Assembly (NCBI GenBank): GCA_944340905.1
Contig: CALVLT010000009.1
Span: 1-61,937, forward strand
Origin: an uncultured Clostridia bacterium
Lineage (GTDB): Bacteria > Bacillota > Clostridia > Christensenellales > Borkfalkiaceae
Direction of reading: 5' to 3'
DNA length: 61,937 nucleotides
Shown: positions 22,282 to 59,527 of the stretch, piece after piece
How the letters are laid out: each line of letters starts with the position of its first letter
Numbering within the stretch: position 1 is the first letter of the stretch
Made by a program: the position numbers and the translations under genes
Notes under the pieces: model-generated
The model's database searches: none
The model's input: the letters and a program-made list of their open reading frames with translations, nothing else
Told to the model about the DNA's origin: nothing

Positions 22282-23532
22282 ATGATCGATCTTACCACTG
22301 TCAGGAACACCGACCCCGAAGTCTGCCAGGCCATGGAGCGCGAACTTTCCCGCCAGCGCGGCAATCTCGAACTCATCGCCAGCGAAAATATCGTCTCGCC
22401 CGCCGTCATGGCGGCGATGGGCAGCCACCTTACCAACAAGTATGCGGAGGGCTATCCCGCAAAGCGCTACTACGGCGGCTGCGAGTTCGTCGATGTGGTG
22501 GAGGACCTCGCGCGCGACCGGCTGAAGGAGCTGTTCGGCTGCGAGCACGCCAACGTGCAGCCCCATTCGGGCGCGCAGGCGAACTTTGCCGTATACTTTG
22601 CCATGCTCAAGCCGGGCGATACCGTCATGGGCATGAACCTCTCGCACGGCGGACACCTGACGCACGGCTCGCCCGTCAACTTCTCGGGAACCTTCTTCAA
22701 CATTGTTCCCTACGGCGTATCCGAACGCACGGAGACCATCGACTATGACGAGATGGAGCGCATCGCCCTCGAATGCAGTCCCAGGATGATCGTGGCGGGC
22801 GCAAGCGCCTATCCGCGCACCATCGATTTCGCCCGCATCCGCGCCATCTGCGACAGGGTGGGGGCGCTCATGATGGTGGATATTGCCCACATTGCGGGGT
22901 TGGTGGCGGCAGGGCTGCACCCCTCGCCCGTGCCCTACGCCGATTTTGTGACGACCACCACCCACAAGACGCTGCGCGGGCCGCGCGGCGGCGCCATCAT
23001 GTGCAAGGAGCAGTACGCAAAGGCCATCGACAAGGCGGTGTTCCCCGGCACGCAGGGTGGACCGCTGATGCACGTCATTGCGGCGAAGGCGGTCGCCTTC
23101 AAGGAGGCGCTCACGCCCGAATTCAGGGTTTATCAGCAGCAGATCGTCAGGAACGCGGCGGCGATGGCGGCACGGTTCACCCAAAACGGCGTGCGCCTTG
23201 TTTCGGGCGGAACGGACAACCACCTCATGCTGCTCGACTTGCGCGGGGAAAACCTGACGGGCAAAGAGCTGGAGGCGTTGCTCGACAGGGCGCATATCAC
23301 GGCGAACAAGAACACCATTCCCTTTGAAACGACGTCGCCGTTCATCACCAGCGGCGTGCGCATCGGCACGCCCGCCATCACCTCGCGCGGCATGAAGGAG
23401 GGGGAGGCTGCTGAGATCGCCGACCTCGTGACCGAAGTCATCCGCGGCCGCGAAGGGGCGATCGCCGATGTTTCGCGCAAAGTCGCGCAGCTGTGCGACA
23501 GGTTCCCGATCTATCAAGGGGATATTTTGTAA
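22282..23532 (+). CDS. glyA: Serine hydroxymethyltransferase
   Basis: PLP enzyme converting serine plus THF to glycine plus methylene-THF. The 416-residue product shows [38 protein letters not shown] and the PLP-Lys motif [13 protein letters not shown] near residue 225. I start at ATG 22282 (ggagcg ribosome site); the longer frame begins with a TTG inside the promoter. It has its own promoter and terminator. Confidence 0.97.
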
Positions 23533-23541
23533 TATCTGCAA

Positions 23542-23584
23542 AAAACACTCCGCCCGCTGTCATCTGACAGCGGGCGGAGTGTTT
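23542..23584. terminator. Bidirectional terminator between glyA and the XRE pair
   Basis: About 20-bp near-perfect stem (aaaacactccgcccgctgtc pairing with gacagcgggcggagtgtttt) with A/T tracts on both sides. Confidence 0.92.
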
Positions 23585-23787
23585 TATTGAATGAGTTCAT
23601 CCAAGGATACTTCAAAAAATTTGGCAAGCTGAATAAAGTGTTTCAATGACGGAACATTCACTCCCCACTCATATGCTTGGTAGGATTGACAGCTAATGCC
23701 AATTTCATCGGCTACGTTTTGCTGCGTAAGATGATATTTTTTCCGCAGACGTTTTAAGTTGCCTGCCAAATTATATAATTCTTCCAT
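23584..23787 (-). CDS. Small XRE-family regulator, paralogue 2
   Basis: The 67-residue, single-domain helix-turn-helix protein (MEELYNLAGNLKRLRKKYHL..) ends at SLDELIQ. It is a paralogue of the gene immediately upstream (6-bp gap), sharing the N-GNLK-LR, SYQAYE and VPSL-FI-LAK blocks. DNA here is AT-richer than flanking genes. It lacks a clear ribosome site, so it is probably coupled to its partner. Confidence 0.85.
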   Translation of the reverse strand: MEELYNLAGNLKRLRKKYHLTQQNVADEIGISCQSYQAYEWGVNVPSLKHFIQLAKFFEVSLDELIQ

Positions 23788-23793
23788 AATATT

Positions 23794-24003
23794 TTATACA
23801 GATTCGATCAGGTCGTCGAGGGAAACATCGTACAGTTTCGCCAATTTGATAAAATTCTCAAGTGTCGGCACGGTGAGTCCCGTTTCATAGGCGTGATAGG
23901 ACTGGTAGCGTATGCCGAGTTGCTGTGCCACATAGGACTGCGTGTAACCGTACTGATTGCGCAATGCCTTTAGATTTTTGGAAATCTGATATAATTCTTG
24001 CAT
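23794..24003 (-). CDS. Small XRE-family regulator, paralogue 1
   Basis: The 69-residue helix-turn-helix protein starts MQELYQISKNLKALRNQYGY. The start at 24003 is favoured over 24015 because the upstream ATG lies in the ggaggg ribosome site and because it aligns with the paralogue. It is divergent from a small gene at 24085 and the shared intergenic region carries two TAGTTTNAAACTA palindromes, the likely binding sites of one or both regulators. Confidence 0.87.
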   Translation of the reverse strand: MQELYQISKNLKALRNQYGYTQSYVAQQLGIRYQSYHAYETGLTVPTLENFIKLAKLYDVSLDDLIESV

Positions 24004-24019
24004 TTGTCCCTCCAAACAC

Positions 24020-24072
24020 TTGACATTTTATAGTTTCAAACTATAAAATTTAAGAAATGTAGTTTGAAACTA
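24020..24072 (+). promoter_or_regulatory. Promoter with twin palindromic operators
   Basis: TTGACA at 24020 and TATAAA at 24042 (16-bp spacer). A perfect 23-bp odd palindrome (24026-24048, centre 24037, core TATAGTTTCAAACTATA) fills the spacer and -10. A second palindrome TAGTTTGAAACTA (24060-24072) covers the start site up to the ribosome site. Centres are 29 bp apart. This design would give tight repression by a dimeric XRE protein. Confidence 0.8.
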
Positions 24073-24084
24073 TAGGAGGAACAG

Positions 24085-24288
24085 ATGAAAGACGTGGAAA
24101 ATAAGCAGTGTGCGGGGCAATCTCTTACCGCGGGGTTATTGCTGGAAGAAATCAGAGTGATTCTGAAGGACAGTTTTGTGGCGCAGATCAGGAAGGCGGG
24201 GGATGAACTTGTGCTGCGCTTTCCGGGCGGCGAGGTATTCCGCCTCACCGTCTGGCGGCTGCAAGAGCGCGGCGCATCCGCTCCTTGA
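24085..24288 (+). CDS. Small protein of unknown function
   Basis: A 67-residue frame with a strong aggagga ribosome site and a promoter under twin palindromes. Residues 14-50 (GLLLEEIRVILKDSFVAQIR..ELVLRFPGGEVFRLTV) look like a small alpha/beta domain; no signal peptide or membrane helix. I do not recognise the family. Its divergent position beside two XRE regulators suggests a small regulated module. Confidence 0.6.
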   Translation: MKDVENKQCAGQSLTAGLLLEEIRVILKDSFVAQIRKAGDELVLRFPGGEVFRLTVWRLQERGASAP

Positions 24289-24295
24289 ATGACGG

Positions 24296-24402
24296 GTGCA
24301 AAGAAGCCCTCCCTGTGCAAGGGGCGAATGTGTGCGTCATGCGCAGCACCACAGTGTGGTGTGCATGACGCACGGCTCACCCCCGAGGGGGAAGGCTCAA
24401 CC
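24296..24402. repeat. Dispersed structured repeat (CCTCCC...GGGGGAAGG type)
   Basis: Starts aagccctccctgtgcaaggg and contains a long hairpin in which gtgcgtcatgc pairs with gcatgacgcac around accaca/tgtggt. A close copy lies at 31861-31940, and looser ones at 48470-48530 and 32190-32263. Confidence 0.75.
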
Positions 24403-24446
24403 GTGTTTACATCATGGTTCCATGTCTGTAAGGAGCATGAAAATGC

Positions 24447-24475
24447 TTGACAGAATGCAGTCCGCGTACTATAAT
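24447..24475 (+). promoter_or_regulatory. Promoter for the FMN riboswitch-ribU transcript
   Basis: TTGACA at 24447, 17-bp spacer, TATAAT at 24470. Confidence 0.92.
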
Positions 24476-24488
24476 ACAGGCAATCGAA

Positions 24489-24600
24489 TATTCTTTGGGG
24501 CGGAGTGAAAGTCTCCACCGGCAGTAAAGTCTGCGAAGGGCGCAAGCCCCCGAACGGGTGCAATTCCCGTACCGACGGTCATAGTCCGGATGAGAAAAGA
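24489..24600 (+). ncRNA. FMN riboswitch (RFN element)
   Basis: Contains the conserved RFN blocks ttctttggggcggagtgaa, ccaccggcagt, gcccccgaac, gcaattcccgtaccgac and tagtccggatgagaa in order. It binds FMN and shuts off the downstream riboflavin transporter. Confidence 0.96.
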
Positions 24601-35272: not shown

Positions 35273-37951
35273 ATGAAAAACATCAGGAAGGAAGTTTCGG
35301 CACTGAGGCTTGCCCGCCCCGCCGCGCAGGAGCGCCTGCGCAAGGCGGCGCGCATGCCCGCGGAGCGCGTGTGCTCCTGGCTGGGAACGGGCGACGGCGG
35401 ACTGAACGCGCAGGAGGTCGCCGACCGCCGTGCACGCTACGGCAGCAACGTCCTTGCCGTCAGGCGCGGCGCGGGCGCGCTGCGCAGGCTGGCGGGCGCG
35501 TTCTTTGACCCGTTTACCCTCATTCTCGTCGTGCTGGCGGCCGTCTCGTTTGTGACGGACGTCGTCTTCGCCGCCCCCTCCGAGCGCAGCTGGTTCACCG
35601 TTGCGGTCATCGCCGTGATGGTCGCCGTCTCATGCGGGATGCGTTTCGTGCAGAAGACCAAGAGCGGCAACGCGGCGCACAAACTGTCCGCCATGATCGC
35701 CCCGACGGCGTGCGTCGTGCGCGGCGGGGTCGCTGCCGAGCTGCCCGTCGCGGACATGGTGGTGGGCGATCTCGTCCGGCTGAGCGCGGGCGACATGCTC
35801 CCCGCCGACGTGCGCATTCTCGCGGCGAAGGACCTGTTCGTTGCCGAGTCCGCCCTCACGGGTGAGAGCGCGCCCGTGGAAAAGAATTCCGCGCAGAGCG
35901 AGGGGGCGCTGCTTGGCTGTGCCTGCCTCGCCTTTGCGGGAACGAACGTGCTGAGCGGCAGCGGCACGGGCGTCGTTGTGGCGGTCGGCAGGGATACGCA
36001 GCTCGGGCAGACGGCAGGCTCGCTCGAGGAAAAGCCCGCGCGGACGGCATTCGACGAGGGCGTGAACGCCGTGTCCCGCCTGCTCATCCGCCTCATGCTC
36101 ATCATGGTGCCCGTCGTCTTTTTGCTCAACGGGCTGACGAAGGGGGATTGGCTGTCGGCGGGGCTGTTTGCGGTGAGTGTCGCCGTAGGGCTCACGCCCG
36201 AAATGCTGCCCATGATCGTGACGACCTGCCTTGCAAAGGGCGCCGTTGCGATGTCAAAGAAAAAGGTCATCGTCAAAAATCTCAACTCCATTCAGAACCT
36301 GGGCGCCATGGACGTGCTCTGCACGGACAAGACGGGCACGCTCACGCAGGACAAGGTCGTGCTCGAACTGCACCTGAACGTGGAGGGGGAGGAGGACGCG
36401 CGCGTGCTGCGCTACGCCTATCTCAACAGCAGCCATCAGACGGGGCTGAAAAATCTCATGGACGCCGCCGTCATCGAGCGCGCCGAGGCGCTGTGCGCGC
36501 AGGGCAGGCTGGACGCGGCGCTCCTGCACGCCTACCGCAAGACGGACGAGATCCCCTTCGATTTCGAGCGGCGCAGAATGAGCGTCGTGGTGGCGGATGC
36601 GTCGGGGCGGGAGATGCTCGTCACCAAGGGGGCGGTGGAGGAGATGCTCGGCGTCTGTGCCTTCGCCGAACTCGGCGCGCAGGCGCTGCCCCTGACGGAC
36701 GAGGTGCGCGGCAGAGTGATCGCCCTTGCCGACAGCCTGAACGCAAAGGGGATGCGGGTGCTCGCGCTCGCGCGCCGCCTTGATCCGCCCGCGCAGCTCA
36801 CGGCGGCGGATGAACGGGACATGACGCTCGTGGGACTGCTCGCCTTTCTCGACCCGCCCAAGCCCACGGCGGCAGCCGCCGTGCGCAGGCTGACGGACGC
36901 GGGCGTTGCCGTCAAAGTGCTCACGGGCGACAACGAAAAGGTCGCGGCGTATATCTGCGCGCGGGTGGGCATCTGTGCGGACAGCGTGCTGCTCGGCAGC
37001 GACGTGGACGGCATGACGGACGACGAACTTGCCGCGGCGGCGGAGCATACGTCGGTGTTTGCCAAGCTCTCCCCCGCCCAGAAAGCGCGCGTCGTGGGGC
37101 TGTTGCGCCGCGGCGGGCACGTCGTCGGATACATGGGGGACGGCATCAACGATGCCCCCGCCATGCGCGCCGCCGATGTGGGCATCTCGGTGGATACCGC
37201 CGCGGACGTCGCCAAGGATGCGGCGGGGGTCATTTTGCTTGAAAAGGACCTCACCGTCGTGGCGGACGGCGCACAGGAGGGGCGCAGGACGTACTTCAAC
37301 ATGATGAAGTATATCAAGATCACGGCGTCGTCCAATTTCGGGAACATGTTCTCCGTGCTTGCGGCAAGCGCGTTCCTGCCCTTTCTGCCCATGCTCGCGC
37401 TGCAGCTCATGATCCTGAATTTTGTGTACGACATCTCCTGCACCGCCATTCCGTGGGACAGGGTGGATGCCAAATACCTTGCCCGTCCCGCCGCGTGGGA
37501 CGCCCGATCGGTGCTGCGGTTCATGCTGTGGTTCGGGCCGGTCAGTTCCGTGTTCGATATTCTCACATACGTCCTGCTCTTTTTTGCCATCTGCCCCAAT
37601 GCATGCGGCGCGCCCTATTCCGCTCTGGACGCGGCGGGGCAGGAGACGTTCGCTGCGCTCTTCCGCACGGGCTGGTTTCTCGAATCGGCCCTCACGCAGA
37701 TGCTCGTCCTGCACCTGCTGCGCACCGAACGCTTTACATGGAGCAGCCGCGCCTCGCTGCCCGTCTGTGCTCTGACGGCGGGCGGCGTCGCCGTGCTGAC
37801 GGCGCTCCCGCTCGCCCTCGGGGAGGCGGCGGGGTTTGCCCATCCCCCCGCGGCATACTTCGTCATGCTGGCGGGCATTGTCATCCTGTACATCATTGCG
37901 GCGTGGGCGTGCAAAAAGCTGTTCGTGCGCCGCTGCGGGCAATTGATATGA
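35273..37951 (+). CDS. mgtA: Mg2+-importing P-type ATPase MgtA
   Basis: The 892-residue P3B-type ATPase has about ten membrane helices, the actuator TGES motif (SALTGESAPV), phosphorylation site DKTGTLT near residue 355, KVLTGDN and GDGINDAPAM. The start at 35273 follows a gaaggagg site; an ATG at 35249 would lie in the possible regulatory hairpin. With the upstream M-box this is a dedicated Mg2+ uptake unit induced at low Mg2+. Confidence 0.96.
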   Translation: MKNIRKEVSALRLARPAAQERLRKAARMPAERVCSWLGTGDGGLNAQEVADRRARYGSNVLAVRRGAGALRRLAGAFFDPFTLILVVLAAVSFVTDVVFAAPSERSWFTVAVIAVMVAVSCGMRFVQKTKSGNAAHKLSAMIAPTACVVRGGVAAELPVADMVVGDLVRLSAGDMLPADVRILAAKDLFVAESALTGESAPVEKNSAQSEGALLGCACLAFAGTNVLSGSGTGVVVAVGRDTQLGQTAGSLEEKPARTAFDEGVNAVSRLLIRLMLIMVPVVFLLNGLTKGDWLSAGLFAVSVAVGLTPEMLPMIVTTCLAKGAVAMSKKKVIVKNLNSIQNLGAMDVLCTDKTGTLTQDKVVLELHLNVEGEEDARVLRYAYLNSSHQTGLKNLMDAAVIERAEALCAQGRLDAALLHAYRKTDEIPFDFERRRMSVVVADASGREMLVTKGAVEEMLGVCAFAELGAQALPLTDEVRGRVIALADSLNAKGMRVLALARRLDPPAQLTAADERDMTLVGLLAFLDPPKPTAAAAVRRLTDAGVAVKVLTGDNEKVAAYICARVGICADSVLLGSDVDGMTDDELAAAAEHTSVFAKLSPAQKARVVGLLRRGGHVVGYMGDGINDAPAMRAADVGISVDTAADVAKDAAGVILLEKDLTVVADGAQEGRRTYFNMMKYIKITASSNFGNMFSVLAASAFLPFLPMLALQLMILNFVYDISCTAIPWDRVDAKYLARPAAWDARSVLRFMLWFGPVSSVFDILTYVLLFFAICPNACGAPYSALDAAGQETFAALFRTGWFLESALTQMLVLHLLRTERFTWSSRASLPVCALTAGGVAVLTALPLALGEAAGFAHPPAAYFVMLAGIVILYIIAAWACKKLFVRRCGQLI

Positions 37952-37967
37952 CGGCGAAAAACGCTGC

Positions 37968-37999
37968 GGCGGCGGGCATTTTGCCCGCCGCCTTTCATT
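37968..37999 (+). terminator. Terminator after mgtA
   Basis: Stem ggcggcgggca / tgcccgccgcc with a short loop and T-rich tail. Confidence 0.88.
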
Positions 38000-38051
38000 A
38001 TTTATTTTGAAAAGCGTCATTCATATCATTTGATTTTTTTCTGCATAGTGC

Positions 38052-38080
38052 TTGCACTTTTTCTTCGCTTGTGCTATACT
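38052..38080 (+). promoter_or_regulatory. Promoter at the left edge of the peptide island
   Basis: TTGCAC at 38052, 17-bp spacer, TATACT at 38075. Predicted start lies at the first base of the hairpin RNA (about 38086). Confidence 0.87.
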
Positions 38081-38085
38081 GAGGC

Positions 38086-38237
38086 TACCACACAAATTTC
38101 ATAGTCACTATATAGGGTTACGAATCGGCAATTTCGTATCTCTTAACTCTATATACTCTATATAGTGGAAATTTGTGTGGTAACAATCGGAGATACTTAT
38201 TGCAGGGCGTGTCTTCGGTTGAAGCCACGCTTTTTTT
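38086..38237 (+). ncRNA. Candidate structured small RNA or leader, with its own terminator
   Basis: The transcript would open with a 97-nt hairpin: taccacacaaatttc (38086-38100) pairs perfectly with gaaatttgtgtggta (38168-38182); after a 5-nt bulge cactatatag (38106-38115) pairs with ctatatagtg (38158-38167); an inner stem tacgaa/ttcgta follows. About 20 nt later an intrinsic terminator (gcgtg..cttc ggtt gaag..cacgc, then seven T) ends at 38237. It is either a ~150-nt small RNA or an attenuated leader of the peptide operon. No known family recognised. Confidence 0.65.
38201..38237 (+). terminator. Terminator of the hairpin RNA
   Basis: gcgtg-cttc / gaag-cacgc stem with a ggtt loop and ttttttt tail (stem 38207-38230). 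Confidence 0.88.
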
Positions 38238-38305
38238 GTTTGCTGTAAAAGCGTGACTTGGGGGCAATATGTCAAAGAAGAATATGCATGTGGAGAAAAT
38301 TTTTT

Positions 38306-38833
38306 ATGAATCTTGATTATTCTGTTGCGAAAAAAGCGGAGATCGATCATGCACAGACAATGTGCGAGGAATATCCGAACGCCAGCTACAGTTGGTATCT
38401 GTTATACACTGCCTTGAGAGGGACGTCAGGCCAATGGACACAAAAAAGATTTTTGAAAAAGGTCAAAACATGCGCGGATTTTTCTTATTACTTTCAAATT
38501 GCGGAAGAAGAATTGGGGAAGGAAATCAAAGACGATAAAAAAAGATTTCTGAAAGAGGCACTTCATAAATTTGGCGGCTTTATAGCAGGTTTTCTGACTT
38601 TGATGTTTTCGCTGGTCGGAATTTTTCTTTTTGCGGTTATGCCGGAATTGATCTGGATTCCGGTAGCTGTAGCGGGTTGCTTTATATTTGCATTCTGGAT
38701 TTATAGCTGTGTGCTTGATCATAGGGGACGGGCTAAGTTGACTGTGCGTATCATTCAATTGATACGGGAAGGCGGATACTCGCTGATGATCAACCAAAGT
38801 GCGATTTATCAGAACACAAATCAAGGGAAATGA
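38306..38833 (+). CDS. Small membrane protein of the peptide island
   Basis: The 175-residue protein has a soluble N-terminal ~85 residues and two membrane helices (about residues 93-115 and 118-140). Segment AQTMCEEYPNASYSWYLLYT matches AKSMCQRYPQSTISWTTLFD in the next gene, and both are followed by a membrane hairpin, so this is a shortened paralogue of the partner's middle domain. The start is uncertain: a 15-codon frame at 38269 (gggggcaat site) overlaps it. Family not recognised. Base composition is AT-richer than flanking DNA. Confidence 0.65.
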   Translation: MNLDYSVAKKAEIDHAQTMCEEYPNASYSWYLLYTALRGTSGQWTQKRFLKKVKTCADFSYYFQIAEEELGKEIKDDKKRFLKEALHKFGGFIAGFLTLMFSLVGIFLFAVMPELIWIPVAVAGCFIFAFWIYSCVLDHRGRAKLTVRIIQLIREGGYSLMINQSAIYQNTNQGK

Positions 38834-38847
38834 GGGAAGACAGAGCC

Positions 38848-40455
38848 ATGGCGATTGTACAAATGAAATGCCCGAATTGTGGCGGGAATATGCTTTTTCA
38901 TAACAATCAGTTTGAGTGTCCGTATTGCTATACAATTCTTTTGAACATTGTGGATGCCACGATCGACGGGGATGTTACGATCATGGATGTCGATGAGTTT
39001 TCACAGAAGTTGGAGGCGAGCAAGCGGCAGTTCGTTGTCAACATCAACGATCGTTTGAAGGTCGGAGATGTTGATACGATGGTTATTAACAAAAAATTGA
39101 AAGATGCAAAATTATTTTTGGATTCCGGACAATTTGACAAGGTGCCAACAGCGCTAAAAGATATTCCATATACCACTCTTAATTCGATTCTTGCTGCCCA
39201 GCGTCTTCTGTTTTTGTCCGAATTGAAAGTACATAGCGAGGCGGAGTTGATGTTTTATGACGGCTTGATCGATCGGTCAGGCTATTATCAGCGCATTTTG
39301 CAATTAGCGGACGAGCCGACCAAACAGACGTACCTGAAACTGGCGGAGCTTTGCACGCTGAGAGAAAATATCAAGAAAGAGGTCGCACGGGTCGAGGAAT
39401 TGTGGAAAGTTGACCTGAAACAGGAATCGGTGGCTTACGCAAAATCTATGTGCCAAAGATACCCGCAATCGACCATAAGCTGGACGACGTTGTTTGATAT
39501 CAAGAGCCGTATTGATCCGAATTATGTCGGCGATATGGAATATGAACGTATGATTTCATGTCCCGATTATAAGGGAGAGCTGCCGAAGATCATGCAACAG
39601 CGGTTTGATTCTTGCAGATCGTGTGCCTTTACGGGTGTTAATGAAAGTCTGCGTTGGATGATTTTCAGTGCGTTATGTTGCATTGTGTTGACCGCTTTGG
39701 TAATATTTTTTATAGGCATGGTGGTCTCTTTATGGACTTATGCCGATCATTTGATGGAGAGCGCCCTGCTGAGCATCCTGATTCAAGTCGGCATTCCTTT
39801 GCTGGCGTTGGCGGCATTGATCGCCATGATCATCTTTTTTGTGCATGCGCAAAAAACATATTTGAATCCACTTACGCGCAAAAGAGTTTTTCGGCGGATA
39901 CTTCCTTTTGTCCCGAAGACAGCGCGCGCAGAGGCTGTCAGGCATTTCAATGCGATCAGACGAGGCGAACTTCTGCCTACGATCGGGCGTTCGGCTGCAT
40001 TCCTTATAATGATCGGATGTATCGTCGGAGCATGTTTTTTCGTTCCGTATATTCTGCACCCAACAGTAGACGGGATAACATATTCCAGCGCAGGGCAATT
40101 GAAAGGCGGATATGAGATCGCGGAGATACATACAGCGGATAGCACATTGATCGTACCCGAGACAGTGCTTTTTTCCAATGTAACGGATATTGCTTGGGAC
40201 GTTGCGATCGATTCGGATGTTTCTATCAAAGAAATCGTGCTGCCCTATGAAGTAGGAAAATGGACTACGACATTGAGCCGATTCCATTCCTTGGAAAGGA
40301 TATTTCTCTATGCGCCGTATCCATCGGAGGATGATGAAGAGTACAGATTTTGGTCAGATGTGCTGGAAGACAATTATTCTTCTTCTGCAACGATCTATTG
40401 GGAAGGAGAATGGGAAATGACGGACGGGAAACCCGTCGTATTGGAAAATGCGTAG
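38848..40455 (+). CDS. Zinc-ribbon membrane protein of the peptide island
   Basis: The 535-residue protein opens with a zinc ribbon (MKCPNCGGNM then ECPYC), then a ~230-residue helical cytoplasmic region, two membrane helices near residues 275-330, a third near 378-398, and a C-terminal ~140-residue domain that would face outside. ATG 38848 is 8 bp after gagggaag; ATG 38830 overlaps the previous stop and is less well placed. The family is not recognised. Context suggests export, immunity or scaffolding for the modified peptide. Confidence 0.7.
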   Translation: MAIVQMKCPNCGGNMLFHNNQFECPYCYTILLNIVDATIDGDVTIMDVDEFSQKLEASKRQFVVNINDRLKVGDVDTMVINKKLKDAKLFLDSGQFDKVPTALKDIPYTTLNSILAAQRLLFLSELKVHSEAELMFYDGLIDRSGYYQRILQLADEPTKQTYLKLAELCTLRENIKKEVARVEELWKVDLKQESVAYAKSMCQRYPQSTISWTTLFDIKSRIDPNYVGDMEYERMISCPDYKGELPKIMQQRFDSCRSCAFTGVNESLRWMIFSALCCIVLTALVIFFIGMVVSLWTYADHLMESALLSILIQVGIPLLALAALIAMIIFFVHAQKTYLNPLTRKRVFRRILPFVPKTARAEAVRHFNAIRRGELLPTIGRSAAFLIMIGCIVGACFFVPYILHPTVDGITYSSAGQLKGGYEIAEIHTADSTLIVPETVLFSNVTDIAWDVAIDSDVSIKEIVLPYEVGKWTTTLSRFHSLERIFLYAPYPSEDDEEYRFWSDVLEDNYSSSATIYWEGEWEMTDGKPVVLENA

Positions 40456-40467
40456 ACAGAGGCTGAT

Positions 40468-41562
40468 ATGGAAACGAGAGATAATCGTGCAAAATCAATT
40501 ACATTGACGGTCACTGAAAAATGCGATCTTGCCTGTATATATTGCTATGAACATAAGAAGACGGCGCGGGACATGGATCTTATGACGGCGCAATCCATTA
40601 TCGATCGGGAATTTTCCGATCATAGTGCGGATAGTTTTATGATCGAGTTTTTCGGGGGAGAACCGTTTTTGAATTTTCCGCTGATCAAAGCGGTTGTTGA
40701 CTACATAGGTAAAACGTATAGTGAGATTCCCGTTCACTATTTTATCAGCAGCAACGGAACGCATGTTCACGGAGAAATCCAACAATGGCTGATTACGCAT
40801 TCGGACAGCGTCACAGTCGGGTTGAGCTTTGACGGGACAAAGCGCGTTCAGGATATGAATCGCTCCGGAAGTTTTGATAAAATAGATTTATTGTTTTTCC
40901 GGAAAATGTATCCCATGCAACCGGTGAAAATGACGGTGTCAAAGAATTCATTGCCATATTTATCTGAGAGCATAGCGTTTCTGCACGAACAGGGATTCAG
41001 GATTGCCTGCAATCTTGCCTATATGGTTGATTGGACGTCGGCAGAGTGTGTGCATATTTTGCAAGAGCAACTTGAATTGCTGATTCAATATTATATCGAT
41101 CATCCTCAGCTTGAAAAGTGTTCCATGTTGAATTACGACATATCGATATTAGGGCATCCCAAAGCAAATCAGGAATATGTAAAAAAATTTTGTGGATGCG
41201 GTACGGACATGCATGTATACAGCGTCGATGGGATTTGTTATCCATGTCAATTATTTTCTCCCATTTCCGCCTCGGAGAAAGCGATCAAATCCTGTGACTT
41301 TCATTTAAAAAGAGAGATTCCGCGGGAATGCTATCCCGCAATGTGTAATGACTGCTATTACGAGAGGCTCTGTGCTTTTTGTTTGGGCAGCAACTATCTG
41401 AGTACCGGCAATATGTTTATGCCGGACGCAAAAAGATGTGAACTCAATAAGGTGATCTTCCGCGCAAATGCAAAATTACAGGCAATGGAGTGGGGGAACG
41501 GTGTTGCATTTGAAGATGAACAGGGATTGTTGAAATCCGTAACAGACATCTTGGGGTTATAA
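40468..41562 (+). CDS. Radical SAM/SPASM peptide maturase
   Basis: The 364-residue enzyme has the radical SAM motif CDLACIYC at residues 19-26, IEFFGGEPFL near 60, GLSFDGTKRVQDMNRSGSF, and a complete SPASM domain for auxiliary 4Fe-4S clusters: FCGCGTDMHVYSVDGICYPC, then CNDCYYERLCAFCLG (C-x2-C-x5-C-x2-C) and a last Cys in AKRCELN. This is the layout of enzymes that make thioether (sactipeptide/ranthipeptide) or other bonds in ribosomal peptides. A Cys-rich peptide gene follows 55 bp downstream. Bond type unknown. Confidence 0.9.
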   Translation: METRDNRAKSITLTVTEKCDLACIYCYEHKKTARDMDLMTAQSIIDREFSDHSADSFMIEFFGGEPFLNFPLIKAVVDYIGKTYSEIPVHYFISSNGTHVHGEIQQWLITHSDSVTVGLSFDGTKRVQDMNRSGSFDKIDLLFFRKMYPMQPVKMTVSKNSLPYLSESIAFLHEQGFRIACNLAYMVDWTSAECVHILQEQLELLIQYYIDHPQLEKCSMLNYDISILGHPKANQEYVKKFCGCGTDMHVYSVDGICYPCQLFSPISASEKAIKSCDFHLKREIPRECYPAMCNDCYYERLCAFCLGSNYLSTGNMFMPDAKRCELNKVIFRANAKLQAMEWGNGVAFEDEQGLLKSVTDILGL

Positions 41563-41617
41563 ATTCGGATAGTCAATGTTTTTACATTAACTAAATATAA
41601 AAAAGGAGGGAAAGGAT

Positions 41618-41797
41618 ATGTTTGTATTGCCGGATGCATTGGTGGCAAGAATCAAGGCTGCGCTCATGCCCGCCGAGTTGGCTCCTGCTGCAGGATATTA
41701 CACAAGCAGTTGTGACTATACCTGCGGCAGTAGCTGTGACAACAACTGCTGTAACGGCTGCCGTGGTTCATGTTCAACGGTTGCGGCACATTTTTGA
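41618..41797 (+). CDS. Cys-rich RiPP precursor peptide (59 aa)
   Basis: A strong aaaggaggg ribosome site precedes ATG 41618. The first ~28 residues (MFVLPDALVARIKAALMPAE..) form an amphipathic leader without Cys; the rest, CDYTCGSSCDNNCCNGCRGS then C, has seven Cys at 32, 36, 40, 44, 45, 48 and 52, i.e. mostly C-x3-C spacing with Ser, Thr, Asp and Asn between. No other Cys-rich protein is near. Immediately downstream of a SPASM maturase and followed by a terminator, it is best read as the substrate. Confidence 0.82.
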   Translation: MFVLPDALVARIKAALMPAELAPAAGYYTSSCDYTCGSSCDNNCCNGCRGSCSTVAAHF

Positions 41798-41815
41798 TCC
41801 GTTGAAACAAAATCA

Positions 41816-41849
41816 AAAAGAACGCTTGCATGCAAGCGTTCTTTTTGAT
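41816..41849 (+). terminator. Terminator closing the peptide operon
   Basis: Perfect palindrome aaaaagaacgcttgca / tgcaagcgttctttttga; long T tract. Confidence 0.94.
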
Positions 41850-41923
41850 AGAGGAAGGAGCGATCAACAAAAGCAATCAGTAAAATATAGAATAATTCTC
41901 TTGTAAAAATTGCGGACAAGCTC

Positions 41924-56375: not shown

Positions 56376-58561
<2,186 letters not shown>

Positions 58562-58647
58562 GCGACGGATTTCGGCAATTTGCGCGGATTTTTTTCTTGT
58601 TCGGGTTTTGAAAACTGGGTGAAATGGAAAAAAATACCGTAAATCGC

Positions 58648-58676
58648 TTGCCAAAAAGGCGCAAAAAAGGTATGAT
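58648..58676 (+). promoter_or_regulatory. Promoter for yajC
   Basis: TTGCCA at 58648, 17-bp spacer, TATGAT at 58671. Confidence 0.8.
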
Positions 58677-58720
58677 AGATATCGTTCTGAAAGGAATCTG
58701 ATCAAGGAGAGAACAAACGT

Positions 58721-59239
58721 ATGTGGTTTGCATTGCTTGAAAGCACATCCGGTACATCCGGCAACAGCCAGAACGGCGACTGGATCATGTGGGTGCTGAT
58801 CGCCGTCATCGTCGTCGGGTTCATTGCCTATATGCTCTTTTCGGGCAGAAAGAACAAGGCGCGTCAGCAGGAATATGTCGAGCAGCTCGAAGCCATCCGC
58901 CCCGGGCACAAGGTCAAGACGGCGGGCGGCATCTGCGGCATCGTCGTCGAGGTGTGTGACGACAACACCGTTATCATCGAGACGGGCAGCGAAAATTCCG
59001 GCAAGTCCTATGTGAAGATGGACAAGGAACTCATCGCCCAGACGGACGCCAAAGGCCCCACGCAGATCGCCCGCGAGGAGGCTGAGGCAAGGCGCAAGGC
59101 GGAAAAAGAGGCAAAGGCGGCGGCAAAACACGGCGAAACGCCCGCACAGCCGTCCGCAGAAACGCCCGTGCAGCCTGCACAGGAGGGCGGCGAGCAGCCC
59201 GAACAGCCTGTACAGGACACGCAGGACGAACAGCCGTAA
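58721..59239 (+). CDS. yajC: Preprotein translocase subunit YajC
   Basis: The 172-residue accessory Sec protein has one membrane helix (about residues 22-41) followed by a YajC core (RQQEYVEQLEAIRPGHKVKT, AGGICGIVVEV). The tail is unusually long: a Lys/Ala/Glu-rich coiled stretch and a Gln/Pro/Glu-rich end of ~45 residues. In most species secDF follows; here a terminator does. Confidence 0.9.
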   Translation: MWFALLESTSGTSGNSQNGDWIMWVLIAVIVVGFIAYMLFSGRKNKARQQEYVEQLEAIRPGHKVKTAGGICGIVVEVCDDNTVIIETGSENSGKSYVKMDKELIAQTDAKGPTQIAREEAEARRKAEKEAKAAAKHGETPAQPSAETPVQPAQEGGEQPEQPVQDTQDEQP

Positions 59240-59272
59240 GACGCCGGAACAAAAATTTTTCATTTAACGCAA

Positions 59273-59307
59273 TACGCCCCGAAAGCTTTCACGCTTTCGG
59301 GGCGTAT
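59273..59307 (+). terminator. Terminator after yajC
   Basis: 12-bp stem acgccccgaaag / ctttcggggcgt with T-rich tail. Confidence 0.9.
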
Positions 59308-59411
59308 TCTTTGACGCTCATTGAATATCCCTTTTGGCAGGGCAGCAAAATCGTGCAGAAAAAGAGACTTTGGGCGGGGTAAAAAATGATTTTCGTCACG
59401 TCTCCCTATTT

Positions 59412-59497
59412 TTGTACAAAAATCGACGAATTTTGTAAATAAATTTTTGAATTTTGTACAAAAATGAATTTACAAATCCGAATTTGTGTTTTATAAT
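59412..59497 (+). promoter_or_regulatory. spo0A control region with repeated TGTACA palindromes
   Basis: Promoter TTTACA at 59469, 17-bp spacer, TATAAT at 59492. Upstream, ttttgtacaaaaat occurs twice (about 59413 and 59453), each a palindrome centred on TGTACA, with related aattttgta between. The region is strikingly AT-rich and is a likely binding site cluster. Only a weak 0A-box-like sequence (cgacgaa) is seen. Confidence 0.7.
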
Positions 59498-59527
59498 ACG
59501 GTTACAATTCAAAAACGGAGGCGAAAT

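What the first reader, a model, noticed from the sequence alone, without database searches (positions are those of the whole stretch)
38000..41850. Accessory island: probable undescribed RiPP biosynthetic operon
Between mgtA and the NifU-like gene lies an AT-richer segment with its own promoter, hairpin RNA, two related membrane proteins (one with a zinc ribbon), a radical SAM/SPASM enzyme and a 59-residue Cys-rich peptide, closed by a strong terminator. The membrane proteins belong to no family I recognise and no standard ABC exporter or peptidase is present, so the route of export and leader removal would be new. Gene order, coupling and composition are seen; the product is inferred.
Basis: partly seen in the sequence, partly recalled or inferred. 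Interest (0 to 1): 0.88.

Follow-up and report, generated by a model that had tools for sequence, protein, structure and literature searches.

The report
Cys-repeat peptide operon behind switch-like RNA
An uncultured Clostridia genome carries a small inserted operon that probably makes a chemically cross-linked, cysteine-repeat peptide, and its leader is one copy of an apparently undescribed switch-like RNA that often stands before surface-protein genes in related bacteria.

Summary
A 3.9-kb AT-rich insertion (about 37950-41904; in relatives L185, L186 and L190 mgtA adjoins the NifU-like gene) carries a promoter, a hairpin RNA, two membrane proteins, a radical SAM/SPASM enzyme, a 59-aa Cys peptide and a terminator. 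The RiPP core is well supported: all 8 enzymes of one 100/100 clade, including a second locus in this genome, have a neighbouring peptide with a shared leader and a CX3CX3C core. It is a diverged branch of the CXXX-repeat/ranthipeptide group (TIGR04115 and PapB models match full length, far below cut-off): a new variant, not a new kind. A new export or leader-removal route is not supported: the membrane proteins recur at none of the other enzyme loci searched. Two things are more novel. (1) The hairpin is an attenuator-like leader RNA with no Rfam match, with covarying stem, pseudoknot and mutually exclusive antiterminator/terminator, found in 51 of 61 genus genomes (own included); the largest class of following genes is LRR_5 surface proteins (18 of 38). 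(2) Five of the 8 clade loci, including this genome's second, add an unclassified 250-aa protein, twice with an IPP isomerase-like gene: a candidate peptide prenyltransferase.

The parts
38052..38080 (+). Promoter TTGCAC-17 nt-TATACT (extended -10) of the leader RNA and operon
   Evidence: Read; TTGC and TGTG-TATACTG invariant in 4 of 4 aligned genomic copies; missed by the consensus scan
38085..38237 (+). Leader RNA: P1 38087-38099/38169-38181; GTATCTC 38136-38142 pairs with GAGATAC 38190-38196 (pseudoknot); antiterminator CAATCGGAGATAC 38184-38196 with 38209-38221; terminator 38207-38216/38221-38230 plus T run
   Evidence: Four close copies in this genome (a fifth, diverged, lies in tandem), model R1, covariation on 29 copies, 51 of 61 genus genomes own included, no Rfam family
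38306..38833 (+). P0001, 175 aa, two hydrophobic (putative transmembrane) segments, no family
   Evidence: recurs at no other rSAM locus searched
38848..40455 (+). P0002, 535 aa, N-terminal zinc-ribbon-like CPNC...CPYC, about three putative transmembrane segments; alternative start 38830
   Evidence: relatives, mostly of its first 220-300 residues, in 11 of 396 order genomes incl. own, at no other rSAM locus searched
40468..41562 (+). Radical SAM/SPASM peptide maturase, 364 aa, CxxxCxxC at 19-26, SPASM cysteines C242, C260, C293, C296, C302, C305, C324; no domain before the radical SAM domain
   Evidence: these cysteines invariant in nine aligned sequences, P0003 included
41618..41797 (+). Precursor peptide, 59 aa: leader of about 25 aa, core with seven Cys, six of them in strict every-fourth register (C-DYT-C-GSS-C-DNN-C-CNG-C-RGS-C)
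   Evidence: six Cys in register in 3 of 200,000 shuffles of the peptide
41812..41849 (.). Perfect inverted repeat with T runs: operon terminator, probably bidirectional
   Evidence: the scan lists it on the - strand; the + strand T run is read
37950..41904 (.). Extent of the insertion relative to three relatives in which mgtA adjoins the NifU-like gene (borders approximate)
   Evidence: composition

Best explanation
The island is an accessory CXXX-repeat RiPP operon. The 59-aa peptide is the precursor: its conserved N-terminal leader (MFxLxxxLxxKIKxxxxxxxLxPA) is recognised by the radical SAM/SPASM enzyme, which has no separate N-terminal recognition domain. Using its SAM cluster and the SPASM clusters, the enzyme cross-links the every-fourth-residue cysteines to nearby residues, most likely as thioethers as in ranthipeptides. 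The two membrane proteins are locus-specific accessories (immunity, sensing or export), not core enzymes. Transcription starts near 38087 and first passes a leader RNA that folds either into an antiterminator or, when a pseudoknot sequesters GAGAUAC, into a terminator, so the operon is probably switched by premature termination, like the surface-protein genes behind other copies. Shown here by comparison: precursor/enzyme linkage, leader and Cys-register conservation, RNA covariation, empty site. Inferred: chemistry, leader role, cluster content, start site, roles of membrane proteins, direction of the RNA switch.
For: Linkage: 9 of 9 rSAM loci (window included) in the 8 of 396 order genomes with a match have the peptide next door; 8 of 8 in the inner clade (100/100 support). 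Four-Cys CXXX pattern in 16 of 148 small ORFs beside the enzyme against 0 of 3039 elsewhere in the same 26 sources. Full-length matches of the enzyme to TIGR04115 (127 bits) and PapB (133 bits); 7 of 8 peptides weakly hit CXXX target models, one (L018) over the TIGR04114 cut-off. PapB makes Cys-to-Asp/Glu thioethers in CX3D motifs (PMC9413430, passages). RNA: P1 has 12 of 13 pairs with changes on both sides, pseudoknot 97.5% of cells paired, 0 of 500 shuffles reach the covariation score; antiterminator 92.7% paired. LRR_5-like proteins follow 18 of 38 copies with a gene picked.
Against: No enzyme or peptide of this branch has been tested. Curated cut-offs for TIGR04115 (350) and PapB (340) are far from met, so the chemistry may differ; four residues after Cys stands another Cys (or Arg, Ala), never Asp or Glu, although PapB also accepts other Cys-Xn-Asp spacings. 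Ten of 26 wider-clade loci lack the strict four-Cys pattern. No exporter or peptidase was identified, nor searched for beyond the operon's own proteins. The RNA copies were picked by a model that already contained P1 and the antiterminator, which favours those helices; the pseudoknot was not in the model but varies little (one pair with changes on both sides); 22 of 500 shuffles reach the count of further pair types. For the antiterminator 3 of 500 shuffles reach the covariation score and 40 of 500 the number of doubly changed pairs. No expression data.
Confidence: 0.75

Rival explanations
1. The modification is not a thioether: the enzyme forms C-C or other links or epimerises residues, and the cysteines remain thiols or disulfides (a metal-binding or disulfide-rich peptide).
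For: Models of several other rSAM maturases match over the radical SAM domain; the CX3C register differs from the CX3D motif read for PapB.
Against: The best full-length models are the PapB and CXXX maturases; Cys positions are the most constant core feature.
Confidence: 0.25
2. The membrane proteins are essential parts of a dedicated new export/immunity route.
For: Tight gene spacing; clade members L013 and L032 also carry membrane proteins (L032 with zinc ribbons) just upstream of the enzyme, and the three loci with them are the three without the 250-aa protein.
Against: P0001 and P0002 are found at no other rSAM locus searched; the L013 and L032 proteins gave no significant match to them; the P0002 relatives viewed are not at rSAM loci.
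Confidence: 0.2
3. The hairpin is a palindromic mobile repeat (MITE-like) or invertible element rather than a regulatory RNA.
For: Long inverted repeat, several copies per genome, sometimes in tandem; the model also hits the antisense strand of some copies.
Against: Stem sequences differ between copies while pairing is kept, with conserved promoter upstream in the own-genome copies and terminator, RBS and gene downstream in most.
Confidence: 0.1

Closest known systems
CXXX-repeat RiPP group of NCBIfam (TIGR04115 maturase; TIGR04114/04117/04118 targets)
   Same: Short single rSAM/SPASM enzyme matched over nearly the whole model, adjacent peptide with cysteines every four residues
   Different: Enzyme scores 127 against a cut-off of 350 and all 10 relatives scanned also fail; P0004 only weakly hits a target model (E 0.019); local membrane genes or a 250-aa protein as neighbours
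Ranthipeptide maturases of the PapB type (NF047865)
   Same: Best-scoring full-length enzyme model; Cys-dense core in fixed spacing
   Different: 133 bits against cut-off 340; no Asp/Glu at +4 from any Cys
Transcription-attenuating riboswitches and leader RNAs
   Same: Conserved domain with pseudoknot, antiterminator/terminator alternative, position before RBS and gene, tandem copies
   Different: Matches no Rfam 15 family; LRR_5 surface proteins are the largest class of following genes; no ligand known

Membership tests
RiPP precursor + radical SAM maturase | Precursor gene adjacent to the enzyme and co-conserved | tested here: met
   8 of 8 inner-clade loci, 16 of 26 wider-clade loci by strict pattern
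RiPP precursor + radical SAM maturase | Conserved leader and variable core at protein level | tested here: met
   Alignment of 8 peptides
RiPP precursor + radical SAM maturase | Demonstrated modification of the core | not testable with these tools
   Needs expression and mass spectrometry
TIGR04115 CXXX-repeat maturase | Score over the curated cut-off of 350 bits | tested here: not met
   127 bits; 10 of 10 relatives also below
TIGR04115 CXXX-repeat maturase | Neighbouring target with Cys every four residues | tested here: met
   model hits weak
PapB-type ranthipeptide maturase (NF047865) | Score over cut-off 340 bits | tested here: not met
   132.6 bits
PapB-type ranthipeptide maturase (NF047865) | CX3D/E acceptor motif in substrate | tested here: not met
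   P0004 has no Asp or Glu four residues after any Cys
SPASM radical SAM enzyme | CxxxCxxC plus SPASM cysteines CX2CX5CX2C and flanking Cys | tested here: met
   Invariant in nine sequences; Pfam radical SAM 33.5 bits over its cut-off of 29.5; the SPASM motif itself is recalled
Known Rfam RNA family | Match to any of 4227 covariance models | tested here: not met
   on the window element only a yeast snoRNA model at 33.8 bits, below its gathering score of 45
Attenuator/riboswitch-like leader RNA | Conserved covarying structure with mutually exclusive terminator upstream of genes | tested here: met
   antiterminator support is thinner than P1
Attenuator/riboswitch-like leader RNA | Ligand- or factor-dependent termination | not testable with these tools
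   Needs in vitro transcription or reporters
ABBA-type peptide prenyltransferase (the 250-aa protein of L012, L014, L015, L016, L033) | Recognisable sequence or fold similarity | tested here: inconclusive
   No significant Pfam or NCBIfam match for the four scanned, no significant PDB sequence match; single-sequence model pLDDT 39 is unusable

The most novel reading that the evidence does not exclude
Two new things meet here. First, an undescribed riboswitch-like leader RNA class of this Clostridia order, which senses an unknown signal and controls LRR_5 surface proteins and this peptide operon by pseudoknot-gated termination. Second, a RiPP clade in which one radical SAM enzyme cross-links a CXXX peptide and, in the branch represented by this genome's second locus, an unrecognised 250-aa enzyme prenylates it (4 of 5 such precursors end in Trp, two loci bring their own IPP isomerase-like gene).
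Probability: 0.45. Interest if true: 0.82.

Novelty: new variant of a known kind. Interest (0 to 1): 0.62.

Why it matters
It adds a compact precursor/maturase pair to the CXXX-repeat peptides, for whose family names a search of the held library found no paper. It also exposes a common, covarying leader RNA without an Rfam family, whose ligand or partner becomes a direct, testable question in a large group of mostly uncultured bacteria. The sister loci suggest radical SAM cross-linking plus prenylation on one peptide; one literature search (listing of 8 papers, mostly reviews, not read) showed no title or abstract start describing that.

Tried and rejected
Considered and dropped. (1) Membrane proteins as conserved core. 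(2) P0002 C-terminus as an LRR_5 cap: resemblance by eye only; no LRR_5 match in Pfam at E up to 1. (3) The membrane genes as kin of other genes behind the leader RNA: no phmmer hit at E up to 1. (4) The 250-aa protein as a known prenyltransferase: no significant family or PDB match; own-genome TIGR04445 search empty, but nothing rang in the 14 control genomes either, so it shows nothing; one single-sequence fold was useless (1 of 2 jobs used); no viral-contig relatives. The K-x-K-x-Y strand motif and the repeat pattern that suggested the ABBA fold are recalled, not from a call. (5) Mobile-element ends of the island: no duplication or long terminal repeat seen. (6) The first alignment of the RNA copies used wrong coordinates and was redone. 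(7) The consensus promoter scan misses the promoter. (8) My first wording, that the leader RNA mostly precedes LRR_5 genes, was too strong: an unselected count gives 18 of 38 (17 distinct genes).

Rows dropped: of 41 R1 matches, 29 went into alignment A8. The 12 left out are 2 repeat reads of the same copies, 1 cut by a locus end, 1 antisense and 8 that I judged close to included ones. The 10 proteins were chosen by me (8 expected LRR, 2 membrane types), so its 8 of 10 is not a rate. One search counts 38 of 39 distinct matches (one had no gene); several of its gene picks, made by script, are doubtful and one belongs to the antisense match. In the tree 29 of the 80 named loci were used plus L012-L019 and L126-L129; left out were duplicates (L035, L038, L042 are the contigs of L017, L019, L018) and others by my choice. 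One search searched L012-L019, L021-L111 and the window; L126-L129 were added.
Full report
What is there. It holds one rightward operon: promoter 38052-38080, hairpin RNA, P0001 (175 aa), P0002 (535 aa), P0003 (364 aa radical SAM/SPASM), P0004 (59 aa), terminator 41812-41849. In three same-genus relatives (L185, L186, L190) the NifU-like gene starts 125-186 bases after the mgtA-like ORF. These are 3 of 17 relatives' loci compared; the other 14 showed no mgtA match there, one being cut by its contig. So the 3.9 kb were gained here or lost there; no target duplication was seen.

RiPP core. P0003 matches NCBIfam PapB (132.6 bits) and the CXXX-repeat maturase TIGR04115 (127 bits) along nearly their full length, but their cut-offs are 340 and 350. 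Ten relatives scanned all fail these cut-offs too. The radical SAM and SPASM cysteines are invariant in nine aligned sequences, P0003 included. P0004 has seven cysteines, six of them exactly four apart; 3 of 200,000 shuffles of its letters do that. A search of 396 genomes of the order found the enzyme (E up to 1e-40) in 8 genomes, 9 loci; all 9 have a Cys-repeat peptide beside it. A profile search of 301 genomes of the family (E up to 1e-60) found it in 8 genomes, adding L126-L129; three of these four have the strict peptide pattern, L129 a looser Cys peptide. A scan of one genome per species gave 80 loci, the best of a truncated list. In a 42-row tree 8 enzymes form a clade with 100/100 support: the window, a second locus of the same genome (L012, about 50% identity), L013, L014, L015, L016, L032 and L033; L014 and L033 are nearly the same. 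All 8 have the peptide downstream of the enzyme, with a shared leader MFxLxxxLxxKIK...LxPA (L016 begins MK and has the isomerase-like gene in between). In the 26-row clade the four-Cys pattern is met in 16 loci; 9 of the other 10 have a small Cys-bearing ORF with an RBS, and L054 has none by that filter. Small ORFs with the pattern: 16 of 148 next to the enzyme, 0 of 3039 elsewhere in the same sources.

Membrane proteins. P0001 and P0002 are only weakly related to each other (22% over 51 residues). Neither recurs in ORFs of any other rSAM locus searched. Relatives, mostly of the first 220-300 residues of P0002, exist in 11 of 396 order genomes including this one. In the seven of eight loci examined where one was located, no rSAM operon is seen; one neighbour is a UvrD-type helicase (L132), and L134 and L138 look the same by eye. 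Only one other genome (G314) has both a P0002 relative and the enzyme, on different contigs. L013 and L032, the nearest enzymes by tree path, have other membrane proteins upstream, in L032 with zinc ribbons. A loosely conserved accessory slot is possible, but a new export or leader-removal route is not shown.

Sister loci with a 250-aa protein. In L012 (this genome), L014, L015, L016 and L033 an unclassified protein of 243-258 aa follows the peptide. In 347 genomes of the order (own included) it occurs in 4, in all 4 beside this enzyme. The four scanned match no Pfam or NCBIfam family significantly, nor does the profile any PDB sequence. L015 and L016 also hold an isopentenyl-diphosphate isomerase-like gene (best models NF002995 and TIGR02150, both below cut-off). 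Four of the five precursors end in Trp, and the fifth (L015) has Trp in its core. Of the three loci without the protein, one precursor (L013) has a Trp. I read this as a candidate peptide prenyltransferase; the structural argument is weak because the single-sequence model has pLDDT 39.

The leader RNA. The hairpin region is one of four close copies in this genome, 75-77% identical (a fifth match there is its own palindrome), each with the same promoter core, hairpin core and terminator, then an RBS and gene. A covariance model from these four hits 51 of 61 genomes of the genus at E up to 0.01 and 35 of 248 of the order at 1e-6, own included in both. The weaker hits were not inspected. On 29 copies aligned by MAFFT, P1 keeps pairing with changes on both sides in 12 of 13 pairs. 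The pseudoknot GUAUCUC:GAGAUAC is 97.5% paired but varies little. For the three-helix structure 0 of 500 shuffles reach the covariation score, 22 of 500 reach the number of pair types, and all slid versions score lower. The antiterminator CGGAGAUAC:GUGUCUUCG is 92.7% paired, with thinner support: 3 of 500 shuffles reach its covariation score, 40 of 500 its doubly changed pairs. It shares bases with both the terminator and the pseudoknot; minimum-energy folds show the antiterminator in some copies and the terminator in others. The copies were found with a model containing P1 and the antiterminator, which favours those two. No Rfam family matches. By an unselected count, 18 of 38 matches with a gene picked (17 distinct genes) precede LRR_5-like proteins (Pfam LRR_5 in 8 of 10 that I chose). 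The rest are other putative lipoproteins, membrane and zinc-ribbon proteins, small ORFs and doubtful picks. Some genes have two copies in tandem (L140, L154). Among the rSAM loci searched with the model (L012-L019, L032-L038, L126-L129), only the window has the RNA directly before the operon; L018 has a copy about 4 kb from the peptide gene. So the RNA belongs to a genus-wide set of leaders, and this operon stands behind one. The simplest mechanism, inferred: pseudoknot formed, GAGAUAC sequestered, terminator forms, operon off; pseudoknot open, antiterminator forms, operon on.

Literature. PapB chemistry was read in passages of PMC9413430. PMC10352776 was seen in passages, PMC8040213 as abstract and outline; other papers only as listings. 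No held paper contains the CXXX-repeat terms searched; no listing pointed to this RNA (15 of 36 papers listed) or to rSAM-plus-prenyltransferase RiPPs (8 papers). Supplements were not searchable, so the RNA could be in published motif lists.

Verdict. The export claim is not supported. The RNA is the most surprising part and the best target for experiment.

Noticed in passing
window 38085-38237; copies in L139-L171: Hairpin RNA is a multi-copy, covarying, attenuator-like leader with no Rfam match; LRR_5-like proteins follow 18 of 38 copies counted.
   Followed up: yes
L012:7228-10235 (same genome, contig 19): Second CXXX RiPP locus: enzyme, Trp-ended precursor, unclassified 245-aa protein, with two Cro/C1-type HTH regulator genes upstream (Pfam).
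   Followed up: partly
L015 (after the 258-aa protein), L016 (between enzyme and peptide): Isopentenyl-diphosphate isomerase-like genes inside the RiPP clusters, suggesting prenylation.
   Followed up: partly
L046, L049, L051, L054: Related rSAM enzymes (36-40% identity) followed by a protein kinase gene (Pfam Pkinase in L046 and L049; L051 and L054 by eye); L046, L049 and L051 also have a two-Cys peptide GCAxGxCxAW upstream, none was seen in L054: a possibly distinct RiPP-kinase set.
   Followed up: partly
L144, L154, L012:6925-7104: Similar 59-64-aa proteins (EYxxGxC...LPxG, by eye) behind the leader RNA in L144 and L154 and near the second RiPP locus in L012.
   Followed up: no
L140:6190-6528, L154:1501-1863, L148:1501-2324: Copies of the leader RNA in tandem or near each other.
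   Followed up: partly
window 23501-24500 and 58501-59500: Other GC dips (0.46 and 0.51) in the window.
   Followed up: no
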